In this document: positions 7,509 through 44,979 of the stretch, in pieces
Numbering within the stretch: position 1 is the first letter of the stretch
Layout of the letters: each line of letters opens with the position of its first letter
NCBI RefSeq assembly: GCF_040712315.1
Contig: NC_134017.1
Span: 52,449,636 to 52,513,635, forward strand
Source of the DNA: Castanea sativa
Taxonomy: Eukaryota; Streptophyta; Magnoliopsida; Fagales; Fagaceae
Reading direction: 5' to 3'
Length of the DNA stretch: 64,000 nt
Position numbers and translations under genes: made by a program
Notes under the pieces: generated by a model
Told to the model about the DNA's origin: nothing
What the model saw: only the letters and a program-made list of their open reading frames with translations
Databases searched by the model: none

Positions 7509-7551
<43 letters not shown>

Positions 7552-18828: not shown

Positions 18829-19158
18829 GAAAGAACACCACAAACAACTTTCCATCGATAAGAGCTAACGAAAGATAGTTCCAGAGGTCAACTTGGCAGA
18901 TATGGAAATCTTAGGGAGTTATAAGAAAGAATTGAAACTCCAGAAGGTATTTTGGCAACTGACCCAAACCCCAGGGGGTGTTTTTACATTTAAGCCAAGA
19001 ATGAAAGAGCATACATAAAAAAGAGTAAGCAATGTTGTCTACGCATTGAAGAAATCTCAGGTGCATGGATTATATGAAGAACTAGATGCTAACCTATGCG
19101 ATGCACAGGAAAGCTATTGTGTATGATAATGTAAATAGACTAAAAGAATATATGTTCA
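18829..19158. other. Left flank of viral block
   Basis: No gene seen. Host-type sequence up to the junction near 19159, where viral coding sequence starts abruptly in the middle of the movement-protein region. Confidence 0.6.
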
Positions 19159-22100
19159 GCAACTAGCCGACGGCATGGTTAGGTTAAGTTTTGACAGATC
19201 TAGGCTCAGCACCCCTCTAGACTATGAGTGTAGACCAACTCTGGACTTACCCCGGTTTAGATCTCCAATAGATCTACAGCAGCCCAGTAAGCAGTCACCT
19301 ATCTTCTTAGAGATAGATCTGCATCCCAGTGTAGCTCAACCAGACCTTTAGGATCACCTTTCCCAAGGTCTAGAAGAGATATAGGTGTACAGCTTCAAGG
19401 AGTTAGAACCAATTCCCAACTCACCACACCTTGCTACACAGCCAAACAAGATTCGATTGTCAATGAGGAAGATGATCGTGAGCAATCCCCCCCATTCCCA
19501 TCTGGAACCGATATGGAACAGCCTCCAGATCAGCAAGAGGATTCTCTGAACATTTTGGTCCTTAACAGAGAATTCGTTCCTGACCTAGAAGAATTAGGTA
19601 AGGAATTTAGTTCTAAGGAAAACAGGACTAAAAGAGAAGCCTACAAAGCCAATTATACCAAGGATCAAAAGGAAAAAGTATTTGAATCATGGACGGCATT
19701 CATGAGGGAAATATCCCGTAATGTCCCCTTTTTCATATACTTTGAAAGGTATTTTGGCCAGCACAAGCAGTTTTGTGTCCTCACCAAAACTTGGACCCTA
19801 GATGAACCTAACCCAACCAAGGAAATGGTTAGCCATCCTAATCTTAAGTAGCTTCCTGTCAAGCCACCCATAGGCAGACAGTCCAGCCTCAGTTATCCTA
19901 AGGACAAAACAGCCTTAGAAATAGTTGCCCAGAAACTAGAAGAACTAGCAAAGAAGAAACCAGCCATTCCTCCACCAAGTTTAACTAGTCGGCTTAAGGT
20001 CTTAAACATCCGTACAGCCTCTAGTAGCTCCTCCTCTGATTCAGAGAAAGAACCTCTAGAAGCCAAGTGGAAACATTTAAGAATGAAAAGACATGAAAAT
20101 CGTGCTAGCAAAGTCCATAGGCCAATTTCCAAAGCTTATAAAAAAGCCAAGAAGCTTAGGAAAAACATCCCACAGAAGCCAGAGAAATGTTTCAGGTGTG
20201 GCAAGTGTGACCATTTCAAGAAACATTGTAATGCCAAACCTTCTCTTGCAAATGGCCCTGTATTCATGTCCCAAAAGCCTACCCAACCCCTTTAACCCTT
20301 AGTACAGGAAACCAATAAACCTGAACTAAGAAACCAGCCATCCAAGGTAGAGCAAGTCTACAAAAGGTTTACTCGGTTTAAGGAGGAAGTCACGACCAAT
20401 GACCTTCGTAGAGAAGCCAATGAAACCAGGTGTAAGATCATAGCCTTGAAGCAAGGACTAAAAGCCCAACAGTTTAAAAATACTTCTCATCAAAGCAATG
20501 AGGAAAGTCCCTCAGATGATGAAGTAGATCAAATAGTTAACCCTATGAATGATCTCATCCAAGAACCCAACGAACAATTGTTCTTAGATGCTATCACTAG
20601 GATTAACTTCCATAAGTGGCATTCCAAAGTCAGGATTGTCATTAGCAAAGATTTTGAATTCAAGGTCATAGCCTTAATTGATTCAGGTGCTGATCTTAAC
20701 TGAATCCAAGAAGGAATTATTCCCTTCAGATACTTCAAGAAGTCCAAAGAGAGATTAACTTCTGCAAGTGGAGGCAAAATGCAGATTGAATTCAAACTTC
20801 CCAAAGCTTATGTTTGTCAAGATAACATGTGTTTTAAAACCACATTTGTTCTTGTCAAAAACATGACAGACAAAGTCATCTTAGGAAATCCTTTCCTTTG
20901 CATCCTGTATCCTTTCACAGTGGATAGTAAAGGGATTACTACCCATCCCTTTGGCCAAACCATCAAGTTTAAGTTTCTTAGTGAACCAGTGTCTAGAAAC
21001 ATTAGCACCATCCAAGCTGACACTGTCTCCAAAACCTTAAACTTGATTAGTGCCAAGTCCATACATCTTAAGTACCTTCAGGAGGAAATTAGATACAAGA
21101 AAATTGAGGACCAATTAGCTTGTAAAACCCTCTAAGAAGAGATCAGAAAGTTTGAGGAAAAACTTAAGCAGGAAGTCTGCTCTGATCTACCCACAGCCTT
21201 TTGGCATAGAAAGAGACACGAGGTAGCTCTCCCATATGTCAAAGATTTCAATGAAAAGGATATCCCTATCAAAGCTCGACCTATCCAAATGAACTAAGAG
21301 CTCATGGATACTTGTAGAGCAGAGATAGAGGACCTCCTTAAGAAAGGGATCATCAGGAAATCTAGATCACCATGGTCTTGTCCAGCCTTTTACGTCCAAA
21401 AGAATGCTGAGATAGAAAAAGGTGTCCCTAGATTAGTCGTCAATTACAAGCCCCTCAACAAAGTCTTAGAATGGGTAAGGTACCCAATTCCCAAAAAAAA
21501 AAAGACTTAGTCAACAGGCTTAGCAAAGCAGTTGTTTTCAGCAAGTTTGATATGAAAAGTGAATTTTGGCAGATACAAATCAGAGAGTCTGATAGGTACA
21601 AGATAGCCTTCACCACACCCTTTGGACATTACGAATGGAACGTAATGCCCTTCGGTCTCAAAAATGCACCATTTGAATTCCAAAATATCATGAATGAGAT
21701 TTTTAATCCATTCTCCAGCCATGCCATTGTATACATCGATGATGTACTCATCTTCTCAGATTCTTTAGAACAACATAAGAAACACCTAAGAGCATTCCTC
21801 AACACCATCAAGCTCAATGGTCTTGTTGTTTCCGCCCCTAAGATCAAACTTTTCCAAACTAGAGTTCGTTTCTTAGGATTTGATATTCATCATGGTGCTA
21901 TCAAACCCATAGACAGAGCAATCCAGTTTGCGGATAAGTTTCCAGATGAAATCCTAGAAAAAACGCAGCTTCAGAGATTTCTAGGTTCTCTCAACGACAT
22001 CTCAGATTTCTATCAAAATCTCAGACAGCAATGCAAGCTCCTTTTTGATAGACTTCGAACCAATCCATCTCCCTGGACCCCAGCCCATACCACAGTTATC

Positions 22101-22613
22101 CAGCATATCAAATAGTATGTCAAAACCCTTCCTTGTTTAGGAATTCCCTCAGCAAATTCCTTCAAGATTGTCCAGACCGATGCCTCAAACATAGGTTATA
22201 GTGGCATCCTCCTCCAGCGTGCCAGTCCAAATTCTCCTAAACAGATAGTCTGTTTCCATTCAAGAATATGGACTCCCACTCAGATCAATTATAGTACTAT
22301 CAAAAAAGAAACACTATCCATAGTACTATGCATCTCAAAGTTTTAAAGTGATCTTTTAAACCAAAAGTTTTTAATCAGGATTGATTGCAAAACTGCAAAA
22401 CATGTTTTAGAAAAAGATGTTCAAAACATTGCATCAAAACAGATTTTTGCACGATGGCAAGCCATCCTTTCAGTTTTTGACTTTGATATAGAATTCATTG
22501 AAGGAAGCCAGAACAGCATCCCTGATTTCCTAACCCGTGAATTTTTGCAGAGTCATAGCCAAGATGTCTGGGAAGAAACCCGTACAACAACCCCAACCCC
22601 CAAAATGTACTAA
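19159..22613 (+). pseudogene. EPRV-A ORF1: MP end, CP, protease, RT, RNase H
   Basis: Visible domains: end of movement protein (19159-19480, broken by a 1-bp deletion near 19310), capsid-like region from 19513, CCHC knuckle of form CX2CX4HX4C at 20188-20229, aspartic protease site DSGADLN at 20680, RT with FDMKS (motif A) and YIDD at 21732-21743, RNase H with TDASNIGY near 22178, end at 22611-22613. Breaks relative to sister copies: stops near 19849, 20293, 20701, 21133, 21297, 22113 and 22344, and a +2 shift in an A run at 21493. Most stops are CAA/CAG to TAA/TAG. Clearly non-functional. Confidence 0.93.
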
Positions 22614-23919
22614 ACAACAAAACCCTATTGGTACTAGCCAAGCACAGAACCCTGGAAAGCTTGTACCAATCACCCCTAGCCAAATTGTCCCAATATCCCA
22701 AGCAAGAAGCCCTAAACAGGATAACCCTGCTTCACCATCAAACATTGCCAATCGTTATTTGGTCTCAGCAATTCCTAAACCAAATTATGAAAGACCACCA
22801 TAGGGTCAACCCAGCTACAGCTCAGCCCTAGCCTCCCCAGTACCAAAAGCAGTCAACCCTTACTAGATAGAAGAACCTTTCAGCCCCATCTGAACCCAAA
22901 GGCCTTCTTCCTATCATCTCACCCAAAGAGGAATGTCCTCTTATATCAAGAAATCTTTCACCCAACATATCTCTTATATTGAACCTCACCTAGTTCATAT
23001 AACAGATCCCCTAGCCTTAGCCATGAAAGCTCTGCCACTAAACTGGCATTTCTTTCCCAAACATCCAGAAAAAAATATCCAATTCTATAAGAGCATCCTC
23101 TCCCAGGAAAAGTATGCTCAAATAGAAAATATCTTCAGCAAAGGGGACCCCCCAGTAGTCCTCTATCACAAGTTCATCATCACAGGTTTTGTCAGCTGCA
23201 AAGAGTGGGGACCACATCCTTCTTTGTTAAGGATCCTCAAAAATTACAGATCTCCATCAGGCTCAGTACTCCATTACAGTTATTATGACTATATGGACGC
23301 CTTTGAAAAAGTACTCTTTTTTCAGAATCAAAGATTTAATCATTCATGGTTCTTGATATTCAGTAAAGATTTCGAGAGCCAAACCCCCTCCTGGTTCCTT
23401 AAGTGGTGGGAAATGTTTGGATCCATCCCTCAGATCTTCCCAGAACCATTACAAGATGCTGTAAGGTACTTTAATTCTAGATGCAGCTCTTCCAGACATA
23501 GATCCCAGTTTCCAGTAATCTTGGTCTTCTTCCAAAGGTACAGTATCCATTGGATCAGTATGTGGAAATACATGATTAACAGCAACCTCTTAGATCGAGA
23601 ATTCTTAGTAAAATGGTGGGACAGCCTTAGGATCAATCCAATCATCAATCAGGTTTATAAGGATTATCCTCCCCCAATTCAGAAACCCATTGCCCACAGG
23701 ACAAGATCTCAGTCTAGCCTAGACTATGTCCAGTTGGCCGAAAAATCTAGCAAAGAGCTAAAAGAATTAGCCTAGCAGCTAATTGCTCACTCGCAGCAAC
23801 TAAAATCAGAAGAACAGGTCTCCCCTACTGCTTCAGAGGGATCAATCAATCACAGTCCAATTGATCCGTTTCAGGATTCCCAAGATCCTTACAGTGGGTA
23901 CAACTTGGACAGCGATTAG
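22564..23919 (+). pseudogene. EPRV-A ORF2, unknown function
   Basis: Starts at an ATG (MSGKKP) inside the last 50 nt of ORF1 in a different frame and would encode about 451 aa ending in YNLDSD. The N-terminal third is Pro/Gln/Ser rich; the rest is Trp/Tyr/Phe rich with WFLKWWEMFGSIPQIFPEP and KWWDSLRINPI, suggesting a folded domain. The tail is basic then acidic. In-frame stops at about 22801, 22864, 22891 and 23773 break this copy. ORF2 of florendoviruses has no assigned function. The same frame is in copy C. Confidence 0.85.
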
Positions 23920-24506
23920 AAAGCATCCTGACCTAGCAAATCAGGATAAGATCACAATCCGGTTACTATTTAAAATTAGCACCAGCCACTGATATGAACA
24001 GTATCCGCATCATGAACAGTACCAGCACCCAGCAGATTCCCTGACAGGTTACTATTTCAACAGTGACCAAATCCGGAAAAGCAAGGGGACAAGTCACTAT
24101 TCATAGAACAGTAAAAGTTACTGTTCACCGACACAATCATTCAGAGTTACTGTTGCTTTCGGTGGAAAAGGTTTTCACCTCAGTAAAAGCAATTCACTCT
24201 CCGTAATTCCAGCAGCATCCAAGGCTCCCACCAGTCTATATAAGGCAGCCTCATCTCCATTCTTCAGCAGGTTCAATTCAAGGAAGAGTTCCAGAATACC
24301 TCAGAGGTCCAGTTTAGGAAAAGCTCTTAAACACAGTCCCCCTCACCCAGTTTTATCAGTATAATCAAATGGCTCAGTTAAATACCTCAGTCGGTATTAG
24401 TCATTGTAATCATATGGCCTCAGTCGGCCTTTATTTGTATTTTCTTCCGCACATGGCCTCAGCCGGCCTTAGGCTGTAACTTACCCCCCCTTTTGTCCTC
24501 AATTTT
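23920..24506 (+). promoter_or_regulatory. EPRV-A promoter / 3' region
   Basis: Non-coding region between ORF2 and the primer site. Upstream part (24000-24150) has many ACAGTA/TACTGT words in both directions. TATA box TCTATATAAGG at 24236-24246. Downstream leader/3' part contains three GGCCTCAGYCGGCC-like words (24383-24475). This is where caulimovirids place the pregenomic RNA promoter and poly(A) site. The terminal CCCCCCCTTTTG precedes the site where TGGTATCAGAGC would follow, but that is lost at the joint. Confidence 0.75.
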
Positions 24507-27241
24507 CTTGTATCTAATTTCCTCCTAAAGGTACTTAAGATGTATGGACTTGGCACTAATCAGGTTTGAGGTTTTGGAGACAGTGTCAGCTTGGATGGTG
24601 CTAATGTTTCTAGACACTGGTTCACTAAGAAACTTAAACTTGATGGTTTAGCCAAAGGGATGGGTAGTAATCCCTTTACTATCCACTGTGAAAGGATACA
24701 GGATGCAAAGGAAATGATTTCCTAAGATGACTCTGTCTGTCATGTTTTTGACAAGAACAAATGTGGTTTTAAAACACATGTTATCTTGACAAACATGAGC
24801 TTTGGGAAGTTTGAATTCAATCTGCATTTTGCCTCCACTTGCAGAAGTCAATCTCTCTTTGGACTTCTTAAAGTATCTGGAGGGAATAATTCCTTCTTGG
24901 ATGCAGTTAAGATCAACACCTGAATCAATTAAGGCTATGACCTCGAATTCAAAATCTTTGCTAATGACAATCTTGACTTTGGAATGCCACTTATGGAAGT
25001 TAATCCTAGTGATAGCATCTAAGAAAAATTGTTCGCTGGGTTCTTAGATGAGATCATTCATAGGGTTAACTATTTGATCTACTTCATCATCTGAGAGACT
25101 TTCCTCATTGCTTTGATGAGAAGTGTTTTTAAACTGTTGGGCTTTCAGCCCTTGCTTCAAGGCTATGATCTTACACCTGGTTTCATTGGCTTCTCTACGA
25201 AGGTCATCGGTCGTGACTTCCTCCTTAAACCGGGTAAACCTTTTGTAGACTTGCTCTACCTTGGATGGCTGGTTTCTTAGTTCAGGTTTATTGGTTTCCT
25301 GTACTAAGGGTTGAAGGGGTTGGGTAGGCTTTTGGGACATGAATACAGGGCCATTTGCAAGAGAAGGTCTGGCATTACAATGTTTCTTGAAATGGTCACG
25401 CTTGCCACACCTGAAACATTTCTCTGGCTTCTGTGGGATGTTTTTCCTAAGCTTCTTGGCTTTTTTATAAGTTTTGGAAATTGGCCTATGGACTTTGGTA
25501 GCACAGTTTTCATGTCTTTTCATTCTTAAATGTTTCCACTTGGCTTCTAGTGGTTCTTTCTCTAAATCAGAGGAGGAGCTACTAGAGGCTGTACGGATGT
25601 TTAAGACCTTAAGCCGACTAGTTGAACTTGGTGGAGGAATGGCTGGTTTCTTCTTTGCTAGTTCTTCTAGTTTCTAGGCAACTATTTCTAAGGCTGTTTT
25701 GTCCTTAGGATAACTGAGGCTAGTCGCGGGAGACTTGACTAGAGGCTGCTGAAGAGTTGAACGGCTAACCATTTCCTTAGTTGGGTTGGGTTCTTCTATG
25801 GTCCAGGCTTTGGTAAGGACACAAAACTGCTTGTGCTAGCCAAAATACCGTTCGAAGTATATGAAAAAGGGGACATTACGGGATATTTCCCTCATGAATG
25901 CCGTCCATGATTCAAATACTTTTTCCTTTTGTTCTCTGGTATAATTGGCTTTGTAGGCTTCTCTTTTAGTCCTGTTTTCCTCAGAACTAAACTCCTTACC
26001 TAATTCTTCTAGGTCAGGAACGAATTCTCTTTTAGTCCTATTCCATATCAGTTCCAGATGGGGATGGGGGGGGATTGCTCACGATCGTCTTCCTTATTGA
26101 CAATTGAATCCTGTTTGGCTGTGTAGCAAGGCGTGGTGAGTTGGAAATTGGTTCTAACTCCCTGAAGCTGTACACCTATATCTCTTCTAGACCTTGGGAA
26201 AAATGATCCTAAAGGTCTGGTTGAGCTACACCGGGATGCAGATCTATCTCTAAGGTAGATAGGTGACTGCTTGCTAGGCTGTTGTAGATCTATTGGAGAT
26301 CTAAACCGGGGTATATCCAGAGTTGGTCTACACTCGTAGTCTAGAGGAGTGCTAAGCCTAGATCTGTCAAAGCTAAACCTAACCATGCCGTCAGCTAGTT
26401 GCTGGACAAATTCTAGATCTGGATTCTGGGCTGGGTTTTGGATCCGTAGAGTATGGTTCTCATTCTCTAAAGTCCAATTGGCTGGGAATGTGACTTCTGA
26501 CCACTTGAGGGTTCTTGGGACCTCAATCTTGGCTCTAGGGTCAGTGGTTTGGATGAGGGTCGTCTCACATTTCTTTCTCCTATCAAGTGCTCCAACATTC
26601 ATGTTGGTTCTCATGCACTTATAGTATACTCTGTATATCAAGGCTATTTGGCTAGTTCTCTGCGTCATGAGGGTTCCATGGGTCTTGATATTGAGTGTGA
26701 GGGCTTTGATGACTGTGCTATCATGGAGATAGATACTGAAGTCTGGGAAACAGTTAAAATGGATGGGTCTGTTGCTAAGACTGGTTTCTATGGTTCCTAG
26801 GAGACTGTCATCGAATCTGATGTGACGAGCATCTCTAAGGGCCATGAGGATTGAGCTGTTCAAACCTCTTCTGGTGAGTGGTTTCACTCCAATTTGGACA
26901 AGTCCTATGTGTAGGAAGTTGTGTCCTTTTTCTTTATGCTTCTGGATGGCTGATGGGGATAACAAGTAGCACGTTTCATACTCCTTGTTTATACCATAAA
27001 CTTGCTCTATGGTCTTAACATGGTAGTCTATCTTGAACGCTCTGCTCAAGGACCATGAAGACTTATAGAATTGGCTGGTGGCTACTTTTGGGATATTCCA
27101 ATCTCCTATGTCTAGATCTAGATCGGACAACTCATAAGACTCCGAATTAATTACTCCTAGGTCTGCTGGGATATCTGGAATGGATGTTGGGTTAGAACAC
27201 CTACTGCTGGTAGAAGAGGAACTTCTAAACAACCTATTCAT
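24507..27241 (-). pseudogene. EPRV-B ORF1: MP, CP, protease
   Basis: Starts at the ATG of MNRLFRSS (27241). The 30K-type movement protein runs to 26048 almost intact, with SIYLHDSTVIKALTLN in its core. It then shifts frame in a C run and has about 50 bp missing or replaced near 26030, upstream of the capsid-like region. The CCHC knuckle is in the open part 25523-25044; protease site DSGVDLN-like codons near 24920; the pre-RT region is open at 24851-24648. RT is absent because the copy is cut at 24507. Confidence 0.9.
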
Positions 27242-27888
27242 GATTCTGGGGTTACAAGCACAAACCAACGATCACAACCTAGTCACCTTTATCCTCAAAC
27301 TTCTGGATCTAACCTTTAGATCTGAAACAAAAATATACAACTATGGGAGAGACACCTGATCTGTGAACTCCTGCCTACCATACTCTCCTTTCAAACTGGG
27401 GACCACCCTTCAACGCCTTCCCTCGGCTAACACGGGCTGACCAAACCAAAACCAGGAAGAATTTTCGGTCATCTTAGGGCTTGGAGACCTACACAGACTT
27501 TGGTAACAAATCTCACAGGCATATAAATCTGCAACAAACTTTAGGGCTAAACACAAAAATAGGAAGAATCGGGATAACAGGGGAGCAAAGGTTAATCTGA
27601 ACAAATAATCACAAAATAACAAATAGAATGGTTAGAAGGAGGCTCAGCCTACCATTTGCAGATGTAATAGAAGATGATGAAATAATAGCAGACGAAGAAA
27701 TAAATAAATAGGAATGGAAAAGTTATCATGAAACAGATGTAAAACAAAATATGGGGTATGAGAGATATATCCATAAAATAATTCAAAATAATTATCATGC
27801 CAAAATAACTTGGATAACTATGGCGGCAGTGCCGACCAACTTGATTGAATGATAAATAGTAACTTACAATTCTGACCGGGCCAAACTT
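27242..27888 (-). promoter_or_regulatory. EPRV-B leader
   Basis: About 650-nt leader between primer site and ORF1. Contains a conserved open stretch (27622-27410) ending QPVLAEGRR with only a late in-frame ATG (MTENSSW), so it is at best a short leader ORF of the kind caulimovirid leaders carry. Repeated nearly unchanged in C, D and E. Confidence 0.7.
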
Positions 27889-27901
27889 AGCTCTGATACC
27901 A
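27889..27901 (-). promoter_or_regulatory. Primer-binding site, copy B
   Basis: Minus strand reads TGGTATCAGAGCT, complementary to the 3' end of plant initiator tRNA-Met apart from the last base. Sits directly after the AACTTACCCCCC unit end. Confidence 0.85.
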
Positions 27902-27908
27902 AAAGGGG

Positions 27909-28484
27909 GGTAAGTTACAGCCTAAGGCCGGCTGAGGCCATGTGCGGAAGAAAATACAAATAAAGGCCGACTGAGGCCATATGGTTACAATGACTAATAC
28001 CGACTGAGGTATTTAACTGAGCCATCTGATTACAATGATAAAACTGGGTGAGGGAGACTGTGTTTAAGAGCTTTTCCTAAACTGGACCTCTGAGGTATTC
28101 TGGAACTCTTCCTAGAATTGAACCTGCTGAAGAATGGAGATGAGGCTGCCTTAAATAGACTGGAGGGAGCCTTGGATGCTGTCTGAAGACTGCTGAAATT
28201 ACGGAGAGTAAATTGCTTTTACTGAGGTGAAAACCTTTTCCACCGAAAGCAATAGTAACTCTAAATGATTGTGTCGGTGAACAGTAACTTTTACTGTTCC
28301 AATGAATAGTGACTTGTCCCCTTGCTTTTCTGGATTTGGTCACTGTTAAAATAGTAACCTGTCGGGGAATCTGCTGGGTGCTGGTACTGTTCATGATGCG
28401 GGTACTGTTCATATCAATGGCTGGTGCTGATTTTGAATAGTAATCAGACTGTGATCTTATTCTGAGTTGCTGGGTTAGGATTTT
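27909..28484 (-). promoter_or_regulatory. EPRV-C promoter / 3' region
   Basis: Same layout as in A: ACAGTA/TACTGT cluster (about 28250-28420), TATA-like CTATTTAAGG (about 28150-28160, weaker than in A and F), then GGCCTCAGYCGGCC repeats near 27920-28010. Confidence 0.7.
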
Positions 28485-34081: not shown

Positions 34082-34710
34082 GATTCTAGGGTTACAAGCA
34101 AAAACCAACGATCACAACCTAGTCACCTTTATCCTCAAACTTCTAGATCTAACCTTTAGATCTGAAACAAAAATATATAACTATGGGATAGACACCTGAT
34201 CTGTGAACTCCTACCTACTGTACTCTCCTTCCAAAATGGGGACCACCCTTCAACGCCTTCCCTCGGCTAACACAGGCTGACCAAACCAAAACCAGGAAGA
34301 ATTTTCGGTCATCTTAGGGCTTGGAGACCTACACAGACTTTGGTAACAAATCTCACAGGCATATAAATCTGAAACAAACTTTAGGGCTAAACATAAAAAT
34401 AAGAAGAATCGGGATAACAGAGAAGCAAAGGTTAATCTGAACAAATAATCACAAAATAACAAATAGAATGGTTAGAAGGAGGCTTAGCCTACCATTTGCA
34501 GATGTAATAGAAGATGATGAAATAATAGCAGACGAAGAAATAAATAAATGGGAATGGAAAAGTTATCATGAAATAGATGTAAAACAAAATATGGGGTATG
34601 AGAGATATATCCATAAAATAATTCAAAATAATTATCATGCCAAAATAACTTGGATAACTATGGTGGCAGTGCTGACCAACTTGATTGAATGATAAATAGT
34701 AACTTACAAC
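34082..34710 (-). promoter_or_regulatory. EPRV-C leader
   Basis: Leader as in B, with the conserved open stretch at 34462-34250. Ends at GTTGTAAGTTAC, where it meets the mirrored leader of copy D across a 46-bp spacer. Confidence 0.7.
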
Positions 34711-34724
34711 TTACCCCCCCCTTT

Positions 34725-34737
34725 TGGTATCAAAGCC
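34725..34737 (+). promoter_or_regulatory. Primer-binding site, copy D
   Basis: TGGTATCAAAGCC, one mismatch (G to A) from the tRNA-Met complement. Lies in the spacer of the C/D inverted repeat. Confidence 0.8.
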
Positions 34738-35384
34738 AAGTTTGGCCCGGTTGGAGTTGTAAGTTACTATTTATCATTCAATCAAGTTGGTCGGCACTGC
34801 CGCCATAGTTATCCAAGTTGTTTTGGCATGATAATTATTTTGAATTATTTTATGGATATATCTCCCATACCCCATATTTTGTTTTACATCTATTTCATGA
34901 TAACTCTTCCATTCTCATTTATTTATTTCTTCATCTGCTTTTATTTCATCATCTTTTATTACATTTGCAAATGGTAGGCTGAGCCTCCTTCTAACCATTC
35001 TATTTGTTATTTTGTGATTATTTGTTCAGATTAACCTTTGCTTCCCTGTTATCCCGATTCTTCTTATTTTTGTGTTTAGCCCTAAAGTTTGTTGCAGATT
35101 TATATGCCTGTGAGATTTGTTACCAAAGTCTGTGTAGGTCTCCAAGCCCTAAGATGACCGAAAATTCTTCCTGGTTTTGGTTTGGTCAGCCTGTGTTAGC
35201 CGAGGGAAGGCGTTGAAGGGTGGTCCCCATTTTGGAAGGAGAGTACGGTAGGCAAGAGTTCACAGATCAGGTGTCTATCCCATAGTTGTATATTTTTGTT
35301 TCAGATCTAAAGGTTAGATCCAGAAGTTTGAGGATAAAGGTGACTAGGTTGTGATCGTTGGTTTGTGCTTGTAACCCCAGAATC
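34738..35384 (+). promoter_or_regulatory. EPRV-D leader
   Basis: Leader with the conserved open stretch 35004-35216, whose first codon is TTG; the first in-frame ATG is near 35153. No convincing protein gene. Confidence 0.7.
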
Positions 35385-38300
35385 ATGAATAGGTTGTTTA
35401 GAAGTTCCTCTTCTACCAATAGTAGGTGTTCTAACCCAACATCCATTCCAGATATCCCAGCAGATATAGGAGTACTTAATTCGGAGTCTTATGAGTTGTC
35501 CGATCTAGATCTAGACATTGGAGATTGGAATATCCCAAAAGTAGCCACCAGCCAATTCTATAAGTCTTTATGGTCCTTGAGCAGAGCGTTCAAGACAGAC
35601 TACCATGTTAAGATCATAGAGCAAGTTTATGGTATAAACAAGGAGTACGAAACGTGCTACTTGTTATCCCCATCAGCCATCCAGAAGCATAAAGACAAAG
35701 GACACAACTTCCTACACATAGGACTTGTCCAAGTTGGAGTGAAACCACTCACCAGAAGAGGTTTGAACAGCTCAATCCTCATGGCCCTTAGAGATGCTCG
35801 TCACATCAGATTCGATGACAGCCTCCTAGGAACCATAGAAACCAGTCTTAGCAACGGACCCATCCATTTTAACTGTTTCCTAGACTTCAGTATCTATCTC
35901 CATGATAGCACAGTCATCAAAGCTCTCACACTCAATATCATGACCCATTGAACCCTCATGACGTAGGGAACTAGCCAAATAGCCTTGATATACAGAGTAT
36001 ACTACAAGTGCATGAGAACGAACATGAATGTTGGAGCACTTGATAGGAGAAAGAAAGGTGAGACAACCCTCATCCAGACCACTGACCCTAGAGCCAAGAT
36101 TGAGGTTCCAAGAACCCTCAAGTGGTCAGAAGTCGCATTCCCAGCCAATTGGATGTTAGAGAATGAGAACCATACTCTATAGATCCAAAACCCGGCCCAG
36201 AATCCAGATCTAGAATTTGTCCAGCAACTAGCCGACAACATGGTTAGGTTAAGCTTTGACAGATCTAGGCTTAGCACTCCTCTAGACTACGAGTGTAGAC
36301 CAACTCTGGATATACCCCGGTTTAGATCTCCAATAGATCTACAATAGCCCAACAAGTAGTCACCTATCTACCTTAGAGATAGATCTGCATCCCGGTGTAG
36401 CTCAACCAAACCTTTAAGATCACCTTTCCCAAGGTCTAGAAGGGATATAGGTGTACAGCTTCAGGGAGTTAGAACCAATTCCCAACTCACCACACCTTGC
36501 TACATAGCCAAACAGGATTCGATTGTCAATGAGGAAGACGATCGTGAGCAATCCCCCCCATCCCCATCTGGAACTGATATGGAACAGCCTCCAGAGCAGC
36601 AAGAGGATTCTCTGAACATTTTGGTCCTTAACAGAGAATTCGTTCCTGACCTAGAAGAATTAGGTAAGGAATTTAGTTCTGAGGAAAACAGGACTAAAAG
36701 AGAAGCCTACAAAGCCAACTATACCAGAGAACAAAAGGAAAAAGTATTTGAATCATGGACGGCATTCATGAGGGAAATATCCCGTAATGTCCCCTTTTTC
36801 ATATACTTCGAACGGTATTTTGGCCAGCACAAGCAGTTTTGTGTCCTCACCAAAGCCTGGACCATAGAAGAACCCAACCCAACTAAGGAAATGGTTAGCC
36901 GTTCAACTCTTCAGCAGCCTCTAGTCAAGTCTCCCGCAACTAGCCTCAGTTATCCTAAGGACAAAACAGCCTTAGAAATAGTTGCCCAGAAACTAGGAGA
37001 ACTAGCAAAGAAGAAACCAGCCGTTCCTTCGCCTAAGTCAACTAGTCGGCTTAAGGTCTCAAACATCCAATCAGCCTCTAGCAGTTCCTCCTCTAACTCG
37101 AAAAAAGAGAAAGAACCTCTAGAAGCCAAATGGAAACGACTTAGAATGAGAAGGCTTGAAAACCGTGCTAGCAGAATCCATCGGCCAATCTCCAAAGCCT
37201 ATAAAAAAGCCAAGAAGAACACTCCACAGAAACCAGGAAAATGTTTCAAGTGTGGCAAGCATGACCATTTCAAAAGACATTGTCAGACCAACCATCCCGA
37301 GATGATAACCTAGTGGCCAAAACCCAGAAGCCTAGCCAAACCTTCCAATCTTTAGGACAGGAAACTAGTAAACCTGATAAGGACCTAGCAACCAAAGGTA
37401 GAACAGATCTACAATAGGTTTACCCAGTCCAAGAAGGAAGTTAAGATCGACGACCTTCAAAGAGAAGCCAAGGAAACCAAGTGTAAGATCATAACCTTAA
37501 AGCAAGAGCTCAATGCTCTCCAAAAAGCTCAACAGTTGAAAAATACTTCTCATCAGAGCAGTGAGGAAGGTCCCTCAGATAATGAAGTAGATCATATTGT
37601 TAACCCTATAGATGATCTCATCCAAGAACCCAGCCAAGAATTGTTCTTAGATGCTATCACTAGGATTAACTTCCACAAGTGGCACTCCAAAGTCAGGATT
37701 GTCATTAACAAAGATTTTGAATTAGAAGTCGTAGCCTTGATTGATTCAGGTGCTGATCTTAACTACATTCAAGAAGGAATCATTCCCTCCAAATACTTCA
37801 AGAAGTCCAAAGAGAGATTGACTTCTGCAAGTGGAGGCAAAATGCAGATAGAATTCAAACTACCGAAAGCCCATGTTTGTCAAGACAACATGTGTTTTAA
37901 AACAACATTTGTTCTTGTCAAGAACATAACAGACAGAGTCATCTTAGGAAACCCTTTCCTATGCATCTTGTATCCTTTCACAGTGGATAGTAAAGGAATT
38001 ACTACCCATCCCTTTGGCTACTACCCATCCCTTTGGCCAAACCATTAAGTTTAAGTTTCTTAACAAACCAGTGTCTAGAACCATTAGCACCATCCAAGCT
38101 GACACTATCTCCAAAACCTTAAACCTGATTAGTGCCAAGACCATACATCTTAAGTACCTTCAAGAGGAAATTAGGTACAAGAAAGTTGAGGACCAACTAA
38201 CTTGTAAAACCCTCCAATAAGAGATTAGAAAGTTTGAGGAAAAACTTAAGCAGGAAGTCTGCTCTGACATACCCACAGCTTTTTGGCATAGAAAGAGACA

Positions 38301-39633
38301 TGAGGTAGCTCTCCCATATGTCAAAGATTTCAATGAAAATGATATCCCTACCAAAGCTCGACCTATCCAAATGAACCAAGAACTTATGGATACTTGCAGA
38401 GCAGAGATTGAGGACCTCCTTAAGAAATGAATCATTAGGAAATCTAGATCACCATGGTCTTGTCTAGCCTTTTATGTCCAGAAGAATACTGAGATAGAAA
38501 GAGGTGTCCCTAGATTAGTCATCAACTACAAGCCCCTCAACAAAGTCTTAGAATGGGTAAGGTACCCAATTCCCAACAAAAAAGACTTAGTCAACAGGCT
38601 TAGCAAAGCAGTTGTTTTCAGCAAGTTTAATATGAAGAGTGGTTTTTGGCAGATACAAATCAGAGAGCCTGATAGGTATAAAACAGCCTTCACCACACCC
38701 TTTGGACACTACGAATGGAACGTAATGCCCTTCGGTCTCAAAAATGCACCATCTAAATTCCAAAATATCATGAATGAGATTTTTAATCCATTCTCCAGTC
38801 ATGCCATTGTGTACATCGATGATGTACTCATATTCTCAAACTCTTTGGAACAACATCAGAAACACCTAAGAGCATTCCTCAATACTATCAAGCTCAATGG
38901 TCTTGGTTTTTCAGCCCCCAAGATCAAACTTTTCCAAACTAGAGTTCGTTTCTTAGGATTTGATATTCATCATGGAGTTATCAAACCCATAGACAGAACT
39001 ATCCAGTTTGCAGATAAGTTTCCAGATGAAATCCTAGACAAAACCCAGCTTCAGAGATTTCTAGGTTCTCTAAACTACATCTCAGATTTCTATCAAAATC
39101 TCAGACAGCAATGCAAGTTCCTTTTTGATAGACTTCGAACCAATCCATCTCCCTGGACTCCATCCCATACCACAGTTGTCCAGCATATCAAACAGTATGT
39201 CAAAACCCTTCCTTGTTTAAATATTCCCTCAGCAAATTCCTTCAAGATTGTCCAGTCCGATGCCTCGAACATAGGTTATGGTGGCATCCTCCTCCAGCGT
39301 GCTAGTCCAAATTCTCCTGAACAGATAGTCTATTTCCATTCAGGAATATGGACTCCCACTCAGATTAATTATAGTACTATTAAAAAAGAAATATTATCCA
39401 TAGTACTATGCATATCAAAGTTTCAAAGTGATCTTTTAAATCAAAATTTTTTAATCAGGATTGATTGCAAAACTGCAAAACATGTTTTAGAAAAAGATGT
39501 TCAAAACATTGCATCAAAACAAATTTTTGCACGATGGCAAGCCATCCTTTCAGTTTTTGACTTTGATATAGAATTCATTGAAGGAAGCCAGAACAGCATC
39601 CCTGATTTCCTAACCCGTGAATTTTTGCAGAAG
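35385..39633 (+). pseudogene. EPRV-D ORF1: MP, CP, protease, RT, RNase H
   Basis: ATG at 35385. Movement protein broken at 35949 (TGA), near 35967 and at 36180 (TAG), with more TAGs near 36345. Capsid-like region open 36579-37313 with a knuckle KCFKCGKHDHFKRHC; a 1-bp deletion near 37288 and a 2-bp loss near 37375 together restore frame. Protease DSGADLN is intact. A 19-bp tandem duplication (38001-38038) shifts frame before RT, and a TGA lies near 38428. RT motif A reads FNMKSG: the catalytic Asp is Asn (38629-38631). YIDD is at 38812-38823, RNase H follows. Reading continues a few codons into copy E. Confidence 0.94.
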
Positions 39634-40219
39634 CCAAAAGGGGGGTAAGTTACAGCCTAAGGCCGGCTGAGGCCATGTGCGGAAGAAAATACAAATAAAG
39701 GCTGACTGAGGCCATATGGTTACAATGACTAATACCGACTGAGGTATTTAACTGAGCCATCTAATTACAATGATAAAACTGGGTGAAGGGGACTGTGTTT
39801 AAGAGCTTTTCCTAAACTAGACCTCTGAGGTATTCTGGAACTCTTCCTAGAATTGAACCTGCTAAAGAATGGAGAAGAGGCTGCCTTAAATAGATTGGAG
39901 GGAGCCTTGGATGCTGTCTGGAAACTGCTGAAATTACGGAGAGTGAATTGCTTTTACTGAGGTGAAAACCTTTTCCACCGAAAGCAACAGTAACTCTGAA
40001 TGATTGTGTCGGTGAACAGTAACTTTTACTGTTCCAATGAATAGTAACTTGTCCCCTTGCTTTTCCGGATTTGGTCACTGTTGAAATAGTAACCTGTCGG
40101 GGAATCTGCTGGGTGCTAGTACTGTTTCGAATGCGGGTACTGTTCATTTTAGTGGCTGGTGCTGATTTTGAATAGTAACCGGATTGTTATCTTATCCTGA
40201 GTTGCTGGGTCAGGATGCT
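39634..40219 (-). promoter_or_regulatory. Copy E promoter / 3' region
   Basis: Closely matches the promoter region of C, with TATA-like CTATTTAAGG (about 39886-39895), the ACAGTA/TACTGT cluster (39985-40145) and the GGCCTCAGYCGGCC repeats. Shared control regions with an unrelated coding part are what is expected of two components of one virus. Confidence 0.7.
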
Positions 40220-41587
40220 TTAGTCAGTATCAGGAGCATTTGATGGATATCCATCATAAGGATCCCATGGGGAATCGTCATCACAATTGTGCTCGTGATA
40301 TCTGGCATAGTGATTGCATAATCCGCAGTAGAGGAGGGGTTCATGGAAAGGCTTCTTCCCTGTAAGGAACTCTCTAGGATTATCTGGACCAACTTTCTTA
40401 AGATTTTTGATGGCAGATTCATATGGGCGTCTTCCAAAGACATAGATCCTATCTGTAGAACCTATAAAATGGTAGTCCTTCCATAGATCTTGGTTGATAT
40501 CCAGGATTTGGTTGTTGAAGTGATTTCTGTAGCGCTCTACTAGAGCATTAGGGTATTTGTATGAAATATATGTATCTCCTTCATACCATGGGCCCTGATA
40601 AGTGAAGCCATTAATGAGGACAAGATGCTTTGAGGGATGAACTTCCATCCAATTGTCTTTGTCCCATTTTGGTAAAATACTCCAACATCTGATAGAAACA
40701 AAGGGGCTGTTGACTTGCTTAACGGCATTTTGGATGATCTGGGGGAGCTGGCTGATTTGGTCATGACTTGTGAGCTTAATAAGTCTGATAAAACTAGATT
40801 CAAACATCTGTGAGAGCCAAGCAGGATCTCTCTCTTCTTCGTCTGATCCGTCTTCATAATTGACCAAAAGTCCCGGGAAGGGATGCTTATTTTCATATAC
40901 CCTGGAGCTGGTTCCAAAGTATTCTTCCCATTTGGCTTGCATGATATAGTTATCAATATCATCTGAATCGTCTGGATTAGGGATAGTGAATGTAACCAAC
41001 ATCTTGAAATGTTTGAACCAGAGATTCAGAGACTTGTTCATAGCCTTGCTTCTCAGAATACGAGTTTGTAAATCTGAGGGCAAGTTGGCAGTGGCAATTC
41101 TTAGGGTTGCTCTAGTCTTAAGACTGAGTTTAGCATAATCAATGCTCATGATAGTCATTTTATCCATTGAATAGATATCCTCTTTGCCAGAGAGTTGACT
41201 AGTTAAGACTTCGTTCCTGGCCTCAAGGTTAACTAGGTGGATTTCTAGTGCTCTGAGGGTTTTTTGGAATAGGTCTTGGTTTTTTCTGGTGTAGGCAAAG
41301 TGAAGGTTATCAAGGAGGCATTTAATGGAGTAGGGTAGGTCTGTATATGCTCCATCATTGAATTGCAAGGTCCTGGATAAAACTTCCTTTAAAACAATAG
41401 CCATATCACCATTGGAATATGTCACCGTTGTAGGGACAAATTCCTGAAGGGATGTTGCTCCTCTATGGCTGGTAGAGGATGCGCCTTCATGCATTACAAA
41501 AGACTGTCCCGCTGGTAGTTTTTTGTCTTGAGGATAGTCTCTTGCAGGTGCTTGCCCCTTGCCTTTCTTCTTTACTGAAGAAGTCAT
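40220..41587 (-). CDS. Intact 455-aa ORF of unknown function (ORFX)
   Basis: Uninterrupted from the ATG of MTSSVKKKGKG (41587) to a stop at 40220, the only undamaged long viral frame in the block. N-terminus is basic and low-complexity; the centre (KCLLDNLHFAYTRKNQ to about residue 150) looks alpha-helical with a likely coiled coil; an acidic stretch with EDGSDEEERD follows; the C-terminus carries CGLCNHYARYHEHNC (CX2CX6HX3C or a related Cys/His arrangement) and an acidic tail ending APDTD. I do not recognise the family. It sits exactly where ORF2 sits in A and C, is nearly the same length (455 versus about 450), and has a similar tail. Could be a diverged ORF2, or a component-specific protein. 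Being intact it may be young or selected. Confidence 0.8.
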   Translation of the reverse strand: MTSSVKKKGKGQAPARDYPQDKKLPAGQSFVMHEGASSTSHRGATSLQEFVPTTVTYSNGDMAIVLKEVLSRTLQFNDGAYTDLPYSIKCLLDNLHFAYTRKNQDLFQKTLRALEIHLVNLEARNEVLTSQLSGKEDIYSMDKMTIMSIDYAKLSLKTRATLRIATANLPSDLQTRILRSKAMNKSLNLWFKHFKMLVTFTIPNPDDSDDIDNYIMQAKWEEYFGTSSRVYENKHPFPGLLVNYEDGSDEEERDPAWLSQMFESSFIRLIKLTSHDQISQLPQIIQNAVKQVNSPFVSIRCWSILPKWDKDNWMEVHPSKHLVLINGFTYQGPWYEGDTYISYKYPNALVERYRNHFNNQILDINQDLWKDYHFIGSTDRIYVFGRRPYESAIKNLKKVGPDNPREFLTGKKPFHEPLLYCGLCNHYARYHEHNCDDDSPWDPYDGYPSNAPDTD

Positions 41588-41853
41588 TGTCCACTTACTA
41601 GTGGTATTAAATATTGCTCTCTCTCTCTCTCCTGCCAAGAAATGTTTGGATCATTTGAGATTTTCAAATAATTGTTGAAAGACCTTTTATTTTTAAAACC
41701 GATGGATGCAGAGATGCAAATATTTTCATGATGAATGCATGATGATAACTGGGACCGATTGTGGTCAACTGTTTTGGCTGAATCAAGATGTTGGGCTTGA
41801 TTATGGGATGGAAGGACGGTGATGGTACTGAGAGTTTTTGATATGGAAGCTTT
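41588..41853 (-). other. Spacer between protease fragment and ORFX
   Basis: 266 nt without a long frame; includes a short CT run just upstream of the ORFX ATG. Could hold a promoter or translation signal for ORFX, but nothing specific is visible. Confidence 0.5.
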
Positions 41854-42540
41854 CTAGAGGGAGCTGACTTCCCAAGGTTCTGGGCTTCTCATAAACTCAA
41901 ATTTGACAGACTGGCCAAAGGGATGGGCTGTGATGCCTTCATTGTCTGTGATGAAAGGGTATAATAAACACAAGAAAGGATTTCCTAGGATGACTCTATC
42001 TGTCATGTTTTTGACAAGAACAAATTTTGTCATAAAGGTTATGCCGCCTTGGCAAACCTCTGCTTGTGGGAGATTGAATTCAATTTGCATTCTTCCGCCA
42101 CTTGCGGATGTCAACCGCTACTTAGACTTCTTGAAGTGTTTGGAGGGAATGATTCCTTCTTGAATGCAATTGAGATCAGCACTTGAATCTATTAAGGCTA
42201 TGACCTCAAACTCAAATTCTCTACTGATGACAATCCTGACTTTGGAATGCCATTTATGGAAGTTAATCCTATTGATGGTATCTAAGAACAATTCTTTGTT
42301 GGGTTCTTGGATAAGATCGGCTGTAGGGTTAACTGTTTGATCGACTTCATCATCTGAGGGACCTTCCTCATTGCTTTGATGAGAAGTATTCTCCAAAAGT
42401 TGGATTCTTCGATTAAGGAGATCATAATCGACCCTGAGAATGGTTAATTCTTGCTTTAGGGTTCTGATACCCCTATCCGTGGTGGTTTTGAATGGAGAGG
42501 CTATTATCTCTTTCTTGCGATGACTAAAGGTTATGGCTTC
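41854..42540 (-). pseudogene. Copy E coiled-coil and protease region
   Basis: From 42540 the minus strand encodes a heptad-like Leu-rich stretch, then the NTSHQSNEEGPSDDEVDQ linker, the protease core ending in DSSADLNCIQEG (Gly of DSG lost), a TAG near 42115, and the rest of the protease to a natural-looking stop at 41854. It is clearly more diverged from A-D than those are from one another (for example AEVCQGGITFMTKFV against AHVCQDNMCFKTTFV). It stops where the RT linker would begin. It appears to be a stand-alone protease domain of a related virus component. Confidence 0.75.
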
Positions 42541-43247
42541 TAGGGGTCAGTGGTCTGGATGAGGGTTGTCTCACCTTTCTTTCTCCTATCAAGTGCTCCA
42601 ACATTCATGTTCGTTCTCATGCACTTGTAGTATACTCTGTATATCAAGGCTATTTGGCTAGTTCCCTGCGTCATGAGGGTTCCATGGGTCTTGATATTGA
42701 GCGTGAGGGCTTTAATGACTGTGCTATCATGGAGATAGATACTGAAGTCTGGGAAACAGTTAAAATGGATGGGTCCGTTGCTAAGACTGGTTTCTATGGT
42801 TCCTAGGAGACTGTCATCGAATCTGATGTGACGAGCATCTCTAAGGGCCATGAGGATTGAGCTGTTCAAACCTCTTCTGGTGAGTGGTTTCACTCCAATT
42901 TGGACAAGTCCTATGTGTAGGAAGTTGTGTCCTTTTTCTTTATGCTTCTGGATGGCTGATGGGGATAACAAGTAGCACGTTTCGTACTCCTTGTTTATAC
43001 CATAAACTTGCTCTATGGTCTTAACATGATAGTCTATCTTGAACGCTCTGCTCAAGGACCATGAAGACTTATAGAATTGGCTGGTGGCTACTTTTGGGAT
43101 ATTCCAATCTCCTATGTCTAGATCTAGATCGGACAACTCATAAGACTCCGAATTAATTACTCCTAGGTCTGCTGGGATATCTGGAATGGATGTTGGGTTA
43201 GAACACCTACTGCTGGTAGAAGAGGAACTTCTAAACAACCTATTCAT
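42541..43247 (-). pseudogene. Copy E movement-protein N-terminal part
   Basis: ATG at 43247 (MNRLFRSS). Open and nearly identical to copy B for about 235 codons (SIYLHDSTVIKALTLN included) up to TTLIQTTDP, where the sequence changes to the diverged protease segment. The sharp change from near-identity to divergence suggests recombination at 42541, before or after integration. Confidence 0.88.
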
Positions 43248-43894
43248 GATTCTGGGGTTACAAGCACAAACCAATGATCACAACCTAGTCACCTTTATCC
43301 TCAAACTTCTGGATCTAACCTTTAGATCTGAAACAAAAATATACAACTATGGGAGAGACACCTGATCTGTGAACTCCTGCCTACCGTACTCTCCTTTCAA
43401 ACTGGGGACCACCCTTCAACGCCTTCCCTCGGCTAACACGGGCTGACCAAACCAAAACCAGGAAGAATTTTCGGTCATCTTAGGGCTTGGAGACCTACAC
43501 AGACTTTGGTAACAAATCTCACAGGCATATAAATCTGCAACAAACTTTAGGGCTAAACACAAAAATAGGAAGAATCGGGATAACAGGGGAGCAAAGGTTA
43601 ATCTGAACAAATAATCACAAAATAACAAATAGAATGGTTAGAAGGAGGCTCAGCCTACCATTTGCAGATGTAATAGAAGATGATGAAATAATAGCAGACG
43701 AAGAAATAAATAAATAGGAATGGAAGAGTTATCATGAAATAGATGTAAAACAAAATATGGGGTATGGGAGATATATCCATAAAATAATTCAAAATAATTA
43801 TCATGCCAAAATAACTTGGATAACTATGGCGGCAGTGCCGACCAACTTGATTGAATGATAAATAGTAACTTACAATTCTGACCGGGCCAAACTT
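43248..43894 (-). promoter_or_regulatory. Copy E leader
   Basis: Same leader as B, C and D, with the open stretch 43628-43416. Confidence 0.7.
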
Positions 43895-43907
43895 GGCTCT
43901 GATACCA
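43895..43907 (-). promoter_or_regulatory. Primer-binding site, copy E
   Basis: Minus strand reads TGGTATCAGAGCC, a full 13-nt complement to the 3' end of initiator tRNA-Met as used by most plant pararetroviruses. Confidence 0.9.
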
Positions 43908-43916
43908 AAAGAAGGG

Positions 43917-44707
43917 GGTAAGTTACAGCCTAAGGCCGGCTGAGGCCATGTGCGGAAGAAAATACAAATAAAGGCCGACTGAGGCCATATGGTTACAATG
44001 ACTAATACCAACTGAGGTATTTAATTGAGCCATCTGATTACAATGATAAAACTGGGTGAGGGGGACTATGTTTAAGAGCTTTTCCTAAACTGGACCTCTG
44101 AGGTATTCTGGAACTCTTCCTAGAATTGAACCTGCTGAAGAATAGAGATGAGGCTGCCTTATATAGACTAAAGGGAGCCTTGGATGCTGCTGGAATTACG
44201 GAGAGTGAATTGCTTTTACTGAGGTGAAAACCTTTTCCACCGAAATCAACAGTAACTTTGAATGATTGTGTTGATGAACAGTAGCTTTTACTGTTCTGTG
44301 AATAGTGACTTGTCCCCTTGCTTTTCCGGATTTGGTCACTGTTGAAATAGTAACCTGTCGGGGAATCTGCTGGGTGCTAGTACTGTTTCTGATGCGGGTA
44401 CTGTTCATATCAATAGCTGGTGCTGATTTTGAATAGTAACCAAATTGTGATTTTATCCTGAGTTGCTGGGTCAGGATGCTTTAGACAGTATCAAGAGCAT
44501 TTGATAGATATCCATCATAAGGATCCCATGGGGAATCGTCATCACAATTGTGCTCATGATAACTGGCATAATGGTTGCATAATCCACAATATATTAATGG
44601 CTCATAATCTGGTTCTTTTGTGATGAACTGGTTGAGATTAACATAACCAACCCTGTGGAGATCTGGAATGGCAGTGGAGTAAGGTTGTTGGTGAAAACAG
44701 AGATTCG
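43917..44707 (-). mobile_element. Pararetrovirus copy F (ORFX tail and promoter)
   Basis: Minus strand, in tandem ahead of E through an intact unit junction. Carries a complete promoter region with TATA TCTATATAAGG (about 44150-44160) and the C-terminal 75 codons of an ORFX-type protein. Cut at 44707 and joined head to head with copy G. Confidence 0.85.
44481..44707 (-). pseudogene. ORFX-type C-terminal fragment
   Basis: Minus-strand frame ending at TAA 44481-44483. The upstream part (HQQPYSTAIPDLHRVGYVN) is only about half identical to ORFX of copy E, but the Cys/His segment CGLCNHYASYHEHNC and the following DDDSPWDPYDGY are almost unchanged. So a second ORFX lineage exists, and the Cys/His tail is its conserved core. 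Confidence 0.75.
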
Positions 44708-44962
44708 GTGTCTATCCCATAGTTGTGTATTTTTGTTTCAGATCTAAAGGTTAGATCCAGAAGTTTGAGGATAAAGGTGACTAGGTTGTGATTGTTGGTT
44801 TGTGCTTGTAACCCCAGAATCATGAATAGGTTGTTTAGAAGTTCCTCTTCTACTAGCAGCAGGTGTTCTAACCCAACATCCATTCCAGATATCCCAGCAG
44901 ACCTAGGAGTAATTAATTCGGAGTCTTATGAGTTGTCCGATCTAGATCTAGACATAGGAGAT
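44708..44962 (+). mobile_element. Pararetrovirus copy G (leader and MP start)
   Basis: Plus-strand fragment: end of leader, MP ATG at 44822 and about 46 codons (MNRLFRSS to SDLDLDIGD). Breaks off at GGAGAT, merging into a TA repeat. Confidence 0.9.
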
Positions 44963-44979
44963 ATATATATATATATATA
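44961..44979. repeat. (TA)n tract at viral/host junction
   Basis: Alternating AT starting at the last viral bases of copy G; the sequence beyond is AT-rich host DNA. Confidence 0.9.

What the first reader, a model, noticed from the sequence alone, without database searches (positions are those of the whole stretch)
39634..43916. RT-less pararetrovirus unit with its own intact ORF: candidate second genome component
Copy E has the same primer site, leader and promoter region as the full virus, yet between them carries only a movement-protein start, a diverged protease domain and an intact 455-aa ORF with no similarity I recognise. RT, RNase H, capsid-like region and ORF2 are absent, not merely mutated. 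Such a unit could replicate only with enzymes supplied by a partner such as C. Bipartite genomes have been proposed for some florendoviruses, but this gene content (protease plus ORFX) may be a new arrangement.
Basis: partly seen in the sequence, partly recalled or inferred. Interest (0 to 1): 0.88.

Follow-up and report, generated by a model that had tools for sequence, protein, structure and literature searches.

The report
Deleted copy of two-part plant pararetrovirus
The unit is a broken, one-off copy of the second half of what looks like an ancient two-part DNA virus scattered through this tree's genome; one half carried the polymerase, the other the coat protein, and the two halves seem to have kept sharing their ends.

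Summary
E is real as described: primer site, leader, MP, diverged protease, intact 455-aa ORFX and the same promoter region; no RT, RNase H, coat protein or ORF2. ORFX is not unique: 39 other near-full-length copies were scored in the 716-Mb host genome. In the 20 loci fetched, ORFX ends a larger RT-less unit: MP - DUF7588 - DUF7746 - coat protein - zinc knuckle - protease - ORFX - promoter, with coat protein in 18 of 20. A (RT) and B (ORFX) units complement each other as in the bipartite florendoviruses of grape, rice and sorghum (PMC4241990). The protease separates A from B completely; MP and promoter trees mix them. ORFX is under purifying selection (median dN/dS 0.16) and shows no detectable similarity to ORF2. 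Verdict: E is a defective one-off of a real, recurrent component B; a new member of a known kind.

The parts
43896..43907 (-). tRNA-Met-type primer site, start of unit E
   Evidence: exact TGGTATCAGAGC, one of two exact copies in the window
43275..43907 (-). leader of E
   Evidence: 97-99% identical to three A-type copies
42544..43274 (-). movement protein (MP) domain
   Evidence: Pfam MP 2.2e-17; 95.5-98.5% identical to A-type copies; dS 0.05-0.12
42472..42544 (-). deletion junction 1 (after MP) and a 68-nt remnant that in fuller B units follows the DUF7588 block
   Evidence: junction found once in the genome
42404..42471 (-). deletion junction 2 with about 6 nt filler, then a remnant of the linker before the protease
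   Evidence: junction found once in the genome
41857..42403 (-). aspartic protease block, B lineage (stop inside)
   Evidence: 80-81% to A copies, 85-94% to B copies; dN/dS 0.12-0.16 against A
41640..41856 (-). spacer between protease and ORFX, no match to A copies of the window
40220..41587 (-). ORFX, 455 aa, intact; C-terminal CxxC-x6-HxHxC motif and acidic tail
39634..40219 (-). intergenic (promoter) region of E
   Evidence: 94-95% to the two A-type intergenic regions in the window, gaps left out; 92.5 and 94.9% with gaps counted
43905..44697 (-). E': 3' end of a second ORFX unit (ORFX tail plus intergenic region) joined head-to-tail to E
   Evidence: last 111 nt of ORFX and intergenic region 92% to E; the 35 codons before that 16 of 36 aligned residues
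27899..34709 (-). copy C, component A type: MP, DUF7588, zinc-knuckle region, protease, RT, RNase H, ORF2, intergenic region; no coat-protein domain found
34712..39632 (+). A-type copy, ends at the ORF1/ORF2 border where it meets E
24492..27912 (-). A-type partial copy (leader to protease)
19150..24496 (+). A-type copy truncated at its 5' end

Best explanation
E is an endogenous, internally deleted copy of component B of a bipartite florendovirus-type pararetrovirus of a chestnut-like tree. Shown: fuller B units run primer site - leader - MP - DUF7588 - DUF7746 - coat protein - zinc knuckle - protease - ORFX - promoter and have no RT; the A units examined have MP, DUF7588, a zinc-knuckle region, protease, RT, RNase H and ORF2 but no coat-protein domains; leader, MP, DUF7588 block and promoter are shared, and MP, DUF7588 block and promoter are intermixed between A and B on trees, while the protease separates them. 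Inferred: A supplied RT and RNase H, B supplied the coat protein in trans, so each needed the other; the common ends let B RNA be transcribed, primed and reverse-transcribed by A's enzyme, and template switching between the two RNAs during reverse transcription kept the ends alike. E then lost the DUF7588 block and the DUF7746-CP-zinc-knuckle block by two deletions (4-nt microhomology at one, about 6 nt filler at the other; no GT-AG borders, so not splicing) and was captured together with A copies and a second B fragment as one compound insertion.
For: 39 other ORFX copies near full length, 88-93% identity, on 11 of 13 contigs (40 of 570 candidates scored). B order with CP in 18 of 20 loci; DUF7588, DUF7746, coat domain (2.6e-10), zf-CCHC and RVP in one B locus read in pieces. 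CP absent from 8 of 8 A copies (typed by protease) that span the place: four in the window, L012, L014, L015, L025. Protease tree: A (8) and B (22) on two sides of a fully supported branch, 0 of 500 shuffles as clean. MP tree (6 A, 14 B): 5 label changes, shuffled mean 5.3; promoter tree (5 A, 17 B): 4 against 4.7; DUF7588-block tree (6 A, 13 B): 4 against 5.3. Three promoter lineages each hold A and B members. ORFX dN/dS median 0.16 over 231 pairs; 12 of 21 other copies open over 455 codons. RT or ORF2 pieces within the same 10 kb in 11 of 20 B loci. Both E junctions found once at up to 3 mismatches.
Against: No exogenous virus or virion is known here; dependence in trans is inferred. Whether a unit with both CP and RT exists elsewhere in the genome was not searched. 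Only 5 A-type promoter regions entered the tree; six B promoter regions (L010, L011, L013, L015, L018, L021) fall outside the three A/B lineages as I drew them, and the L025 pair inside the third is only 83% like its A member; the host-genome search for more A copies did not complete. One A/B chimera (L025) and one B-to-RT hybrid (L028) exist. ORFX is not detectably related to ORF2, unlike the published grape components. No RT phylogeny was made.
Confidence: 0.82

Rival explanations
1. B units are helper-dependent satellites or defective genomes of a complete (monopartite) florendovirus, not half of a bipartite genome.
For: RT-less units must use a helper's RT; most florendoviruses are monopartite (PMC4241990, passages). 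The genome was not searched for CP+RT units.
Against: 8 of 8 A copies examined lack CP, so the RT-bearing partner seen here is itself incomplete; ORFX and the B protease evolved under purifying selection; A and B share lineage-specific promoters.
Confidence: 0.12
2. E as laid out (MP - protease - ORFX, no CP) is itself a replicating component.
For: ORFX is intact in E; leader and promoter are kept; a second unit end, E', lies in tandem with it.
Against: Each deletion junction occurs once in 716 Mb at up to 3 mismatches, reversed-pattern controls 0; a 231-bp junction query matches in full only at E (40 of 682 candidates scored); the protease frame is broken.
Confidence: 0.04
3. The ORFX units are a recombinant or transposon that multiplied inside the genome, with ends made alike by gene conversion after integration.
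For: RT or ORF2 pieces lie within 10 kb in 11 of 20 B loci, so conversion between neighbours is possible; an A/B chimera was seen in L025.
Against: dN/dS around 0.15-0.3 over all ranges of dS points to selection on ORFX through many generations, not neutral copying; CP - protease - ORFX fusions also occur in Lithocarpus gene models.
Confidence: 0.08
4. ORFX is a very diverged ORF2, as described for rice and sorghum component B, rather than a different gene.
For: Same position at the 3' end before the promoter, similar length, both end in an acidic DPY-GY tail (read by eye); PMC4241990 reports homology of the grape extension to ORF2 and more divergent homologues in the grasses.
Against: hhalign score 19.6 for families of 131 and 119 sequences, inside 30 column-shuffled controls (maximum 22.9); probability 1.3% with the smaller alignments.
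Confidence: 0.5

Closest known systems
Vitis vinifera B virus and D virus, components A and B (PMC4241990, passages read)
   Same: A with RT and ORF2 but CP partly or wholly deleted; B with MP, CP and protease in one polyprotein plus a C-terminal extension and no RT; near-identical promoter and MP; compound insertions.
   Different: Host family (Fagaceae, inferred); the B extension (ORFX) shows no detectable similarity to ORF2; no match to A's RT/RNase H between protease and ORFX in E, where grape B keeps a part of RH1.
Oryza sativa B virus and Sorghum bicolor virus (PMC4241990, passages read)
   Same: Same two-component layout; ORF2 homologues more divergent.
   Different: Monocot hosts; no sequence comparison was made here.
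Sugar beet endogenous florendovirus (cited in PMC10377300, passages read; the paper I took to be the original was not held)
   Same: Reported as further evidence for bipartite florendoviruses.
   Different: Details not seen.
Castanea dentata Florendovirus-01 RT cluster (PMC9794742, passages read)
   Same: 12 identical florendovirus RT domains in chestnut, perhaps the A side of this system (inferred).
   Different: A survey of RT domains; RT-less units lie outside its method.

Membership tests
Florendovirus (Caulimoviridae) | Polyprotein with MP, protease, RT and RNase H1 followed by a florendovirus-specific ORF2 | tested here: met
   A copies: MP, RVT_1, RT_RNaseH, DUF7588 and RVP, zinc knuckle only below Pfam's cut-off; ORF2 81-82% to a Castanea dentata protein. 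That this ORF2 is the published one is inferred from position and length
Florendovirus (Caulimoviridae) | tRNA-Met consensus primer site at the genome start | tested here: met
   TGGTATCAGAGC at 43907-43896 and 27901-27890; that this is the tRNA-Met consensus is recalled
Florendovirus (Caulimoviridae) | RT-RNase H phylogeny inside the florendovirus clade | not tested
   No reference caulimovirid sequences were fetched
Bipartite florendovirus (component A) | RT and ORF2 present, CP domain deleted | tested here: met
   CP missing in 8 of 8 A-type copies that span the place; some of these are truncated before RT
Bipartite florendovirus (component B) | MP, CP, protease and a C-terminal extension; no RT | tested here: met
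   CP in 18 of 20 ORFX loci; no RT or ORF2 between protease and ORFX except in the A/B chimera L025; MP through ORFX one open frame in two of three loci checked
Bipartite florendovirus (component B), unit E itself | Coat protein present | tested here: not met
   E lost it by two deletions found nowhere else; E is a defective derivative
Bipartite florendovirus | Over 90% identity of the intergenic region and over 87% of MP between A and B | tested here: met
   E against window A copies: 94-95% and 95.5-98.5%; A/B pairs in one locus, L017, L019, L028: 94.3, 96.4, 95.3%
Bipartite florendovirus | C-terminal extension of B homologous to ORF2 | tested here: inconclusive
   No similarity beyond shuffled controls; profiles are shallow and the ORFX model is unusable (mean pLDDT 38)
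Bipartite florendovirus | Compound A+B insertions | tested here: met
   RT or ORF2 pieces within the fetched 10 kb in 11 of 20 B loci, and the window itself
Florendovirus endogenous loci | Insertion at TA repeats | tested here: inconclusive
   TA repeat 44962-44979 at the right border of the array; none at the left border
Bipartite florendovirus | Two components replicate and are packaged together | not testable with these tools
   Only endogenous copies are at hand

The most novel reading that the evidence does not exclude
ORFX is not an altered ORF2 but a separate gene, private to the RT-less segment and kept under selection in virus lineages of chestnut-like and Lithocarpus hosts. The pararetrovirus would then have had a lasting two-segment genome with segment-specific genes and continually exchanged common ends, comparable to the common regions of segmented DNA viruses (recalled) and, to my knowledge, not described for reverse-transcribing viruses.
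Probability: 0.35. Interest if true: 0.75.

Novelty: new member of a known kind. Interest (0 to 1): 0.55.

Why it matters
In the passages I read, a split genome is claimed for reverse-transcribing viruses only in a few endogenous florendoviruses, from reconstructed sequences of three hosts (PMC4241990; a fourth cited in PMC10377300). Here real genomic copies in another plant family give an independent, quantitative test: the protease splits cleanly by component while MP and promoter mix, and three promoter lineages hold both components. This makes the question whether retroelement genomes can be multipartite directly testable in Fagaceae assemblies, and shows why surveys by RT domain miss half of the system.

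Tried and rejected
Rejected: ORFX as host gene (relatives are fused to caulimovirid coat-type domains and protease). E as a recent deletion of C (protease dS 0.81-0.92 against MP dS 0.05-0.12). E as retrocopy of a spliced RNA (no GT-AG at the junctions). E's layout as a component (junctions found once).

Rows left out before counting: MP tree: MP stretches that were short, inverted or of unknown component (in L009, L015, L016, L017, L025). Promoter tree: promoter stretches that were partial (B: L012, L014, L020, L022, L026, L027; A: L020, L023). Protease tree: partial or second stretches in L015, L021, L025. DUF7588 tree: L012, L013, L017, L023, L028 and one window copy, partial or rearranged. 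A-copy count: L028, a B-to-RT hybrid without protease.

Literature on Fagaceae: the searches listed no paper on bipartite florendoviruses of Fagaceae in this library (only the top of the long lists was shown); that is no proof of absence. No paper holds the word DUF7746.
Full report
Observation. Unit E lies on the minus strand from the primer site at 43907 to the end of the promoter region at 39634. Piecewise comparison inside the window shows leader and MP 95-99% identical to three other copies, the protease block 80-81% identical to four copies, and the promoter region 92-95% identical to three. The rest (42539-42404, 41856-41640, ORFX) is private to E in this window, except the last 111 nt of ORFX, which recur at 44591-44481 as the end of a second unit, E', joined head-to-tail to E. 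ORFX is an intact 455-codon frame.

Is it unique? ORFX has 92 database relatives at E up to 10; the 22 with a source name are all Lithocarpus litseifolius, and a profile search gave 299, of which the best 120 were listed. Several Lithocarpus gene models fuse ORFX to caulimovirid parts: P0077 reads DUF7746 - weak coat domain - retropepsin - ORFX, P0071 and P0076 DUF7746 - weak coat domain - ORFX, P0024 DUF7746 - ORFX, P0002 a weak zinc knuckle - ORFX ('weak' means below Pfam's cut-off). The host genome has 716 Mb in 13 contigs; it is probably a chestnut, since the closest named ORF2 relatives are Castanea dentata (inference). It scored 40 near-full-length ORFX copies including E (570 candidates in the first look), the other 39 at 88-93% identity, together on 11 contigs.

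What the fuller unit looks like. In these loci the ORFX unit reads: primer site and leader, MP, a block about 90% identical to A copies that holds DUF7588, a B-only region, the protease (85-94% to E), a short spacer, ORFX, then the promoter region. MP through ORFX stand in order on one strand in 12 of 20; the others are truncated or rearranged. In the one locus scanned, the B-only region holds DUF7746, the caulimovirus coat domain (E 2.6e-10) and a zinc knuckle. A coat-protein piece from it hits 18 of 20 ORFX loci; the two misses are a 5'-truncated copy (L024) and an A/B chimera (L025). In two of three B loci checked, MP through ORFX is one open frame; in the third it is split in two. [quoted passage not shown]

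What the partner looks like. In a window A copy, DUF7588 is followed by the zinc-knuckle region with no DUF7746 or coat domain between, and the coat-protein piece finds nothing in the whole window. MP end to protease start is about 1.4-1.5 kb in A copies and about 2.6-2.8 kb in B copies. All 8 A-type copies (typed by protease) that span the place lack CP: four in the window, and L012, L014, L015, L025. A and B are complementary: A brings RT and RNase H, B brings the coat protein.

What E is. The 136 nt between MP and protease in E consist of two pieces that lie about 1.9 kb apart in fuller B units, and the DUF7588 block that should precede the first piece is missing as well. E therefore lost two internal stretches. 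Junction 1 falls in a 4-nt microhomology; junction 2 carries about 6 nt of filler (which, with the next 3 nt, happens to read like the primer site); neither shows GT-AG borders. Each junction pattern, allowing 3 mismatches, occurs once in the genome, in E, with reversed-pattern controls at 0; a 231-bp junction query matched in full only at E (40 of 682 candidates scored). E's CP-less layout is a one-off defect.

Evidence that A and B were partners. The protease of E differs from A proteases at dS 0.81-0.92 with dN/dS 0.12-0.16, while its MP differs from A copies at dS 0.05-0.12. Over many loci, protease sequences split into A (8) and B (22) across one fully supported branch (0 of 500 shuffles as clean). 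MP sequences (6 A, 14 B) need 5 label changes, like shuffled labels (mean 5.3; about 250 of 500 as low), and promoter regions (5 A, 17 B) need 4 (mean 4.7; 146-161 of 500). The DUF7588 block (6 A, 13 B) needs 4 against a mean of 5.3 (56-73 of 500 as low). Promoter regions fall into lineages that contain A and B members: first, E, E', L009 and the two window A copies (91-95% alike); second, L016, L017, L019, L024 and the A copies of L017 and L019 (93-98%); third, L028, L023 and the A copy of L028 (91-95%), with the two L025 promoters as a longer branch (83% to the A copy). The first is 72-78% like the second and 78-82% like the third; second and third are closer, 78-91%. Six B promoters (L010, L011, L013, L015, L018, L021) lie outside these lineages and had no A member in my small A sample. 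So the cores have long been separate while the ends are shared by lineage. Template switching between co-replicating RNAs with the same primer site and terminal sequences would do this (inference from the known replication of pararetroviruses). Gene conversion after integration is possible for part of it.

ORFX. Among 22 copies, dN/dS has a median of 0.16 over 231 pairs. Twelve of the 21 copies other than E remain open over 455 codons. The C-terminus keeps CxxC-x6-HxHxC in 20 of 22 copies, a possible metal-binding site, followed by an acidic tail. No Pfam domain, no significant solved-structure match, and no usable AlphaFold2 model (pLDDT 38). Profile comparison with ORF2 is at the level of shuffled controls. 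My working guess for its role is a nucleic-acid-binding accessory protein standing in the place that ORF2 has in A; this is inference and weak.

Comparison with the known. The system works like, and by most tested features is, a bipartite florendovirus. It differs from grape in host family, in the lack of detectable ORFX-ORF2 similarity, and in showing no match to A's RT/RNase H between protease and ORFX of E. A survey of RT domains had already noted 12 identical florendovirus RTs in Castanea dentata (PMC9794742, passages read); its method looks for RT and so passes over RT-less units. An RT phylogeny was not done, and no infectious form is known to me.

Noticed in passing
1-11706 and 58082-64000: Direct duplication at about 97% identity (1-2935 to 58082-61004, 8866-11706 to 61206-64000); the first copy has about 5.7 kb more between the two parts, with several TA repeats. 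The virus array lies between the copies.
   Followed up: partly
11941-14614: Head-to-tail repeat with a spacing of about 1.18 kb, three copies of its 300-nt core at 97-99% identity.
   Followed up: no
32901-36565: Two A-type copies head to head, inverted arms of 1.8 kb only 43 nt apart.
   Followed up: no
44592-44697: Before its last 111 nt, the ORFX end of E' matches E at only 16 of 36 residues, so a second, diverged ORFX lineage seems to share the same 3' end; the stretch is short.
   Followed up: partly
L025:3502-8499 and L028:113-2241: A/B chimeras: A-type MP to RT joined to a B protease end and ORFX in L025; B-type linker joined to RT in L028.
   Followed up: no
39625-39650: The inverted junction between an A copy and E may fall in a short shared CCAA, suggesting microhomology joining.
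   Followed up: partly
44962-44979: TA repeat at the right border of the viral array, as reported for florendovirus insertions (PMC4241990, passages).
   Followed up: no
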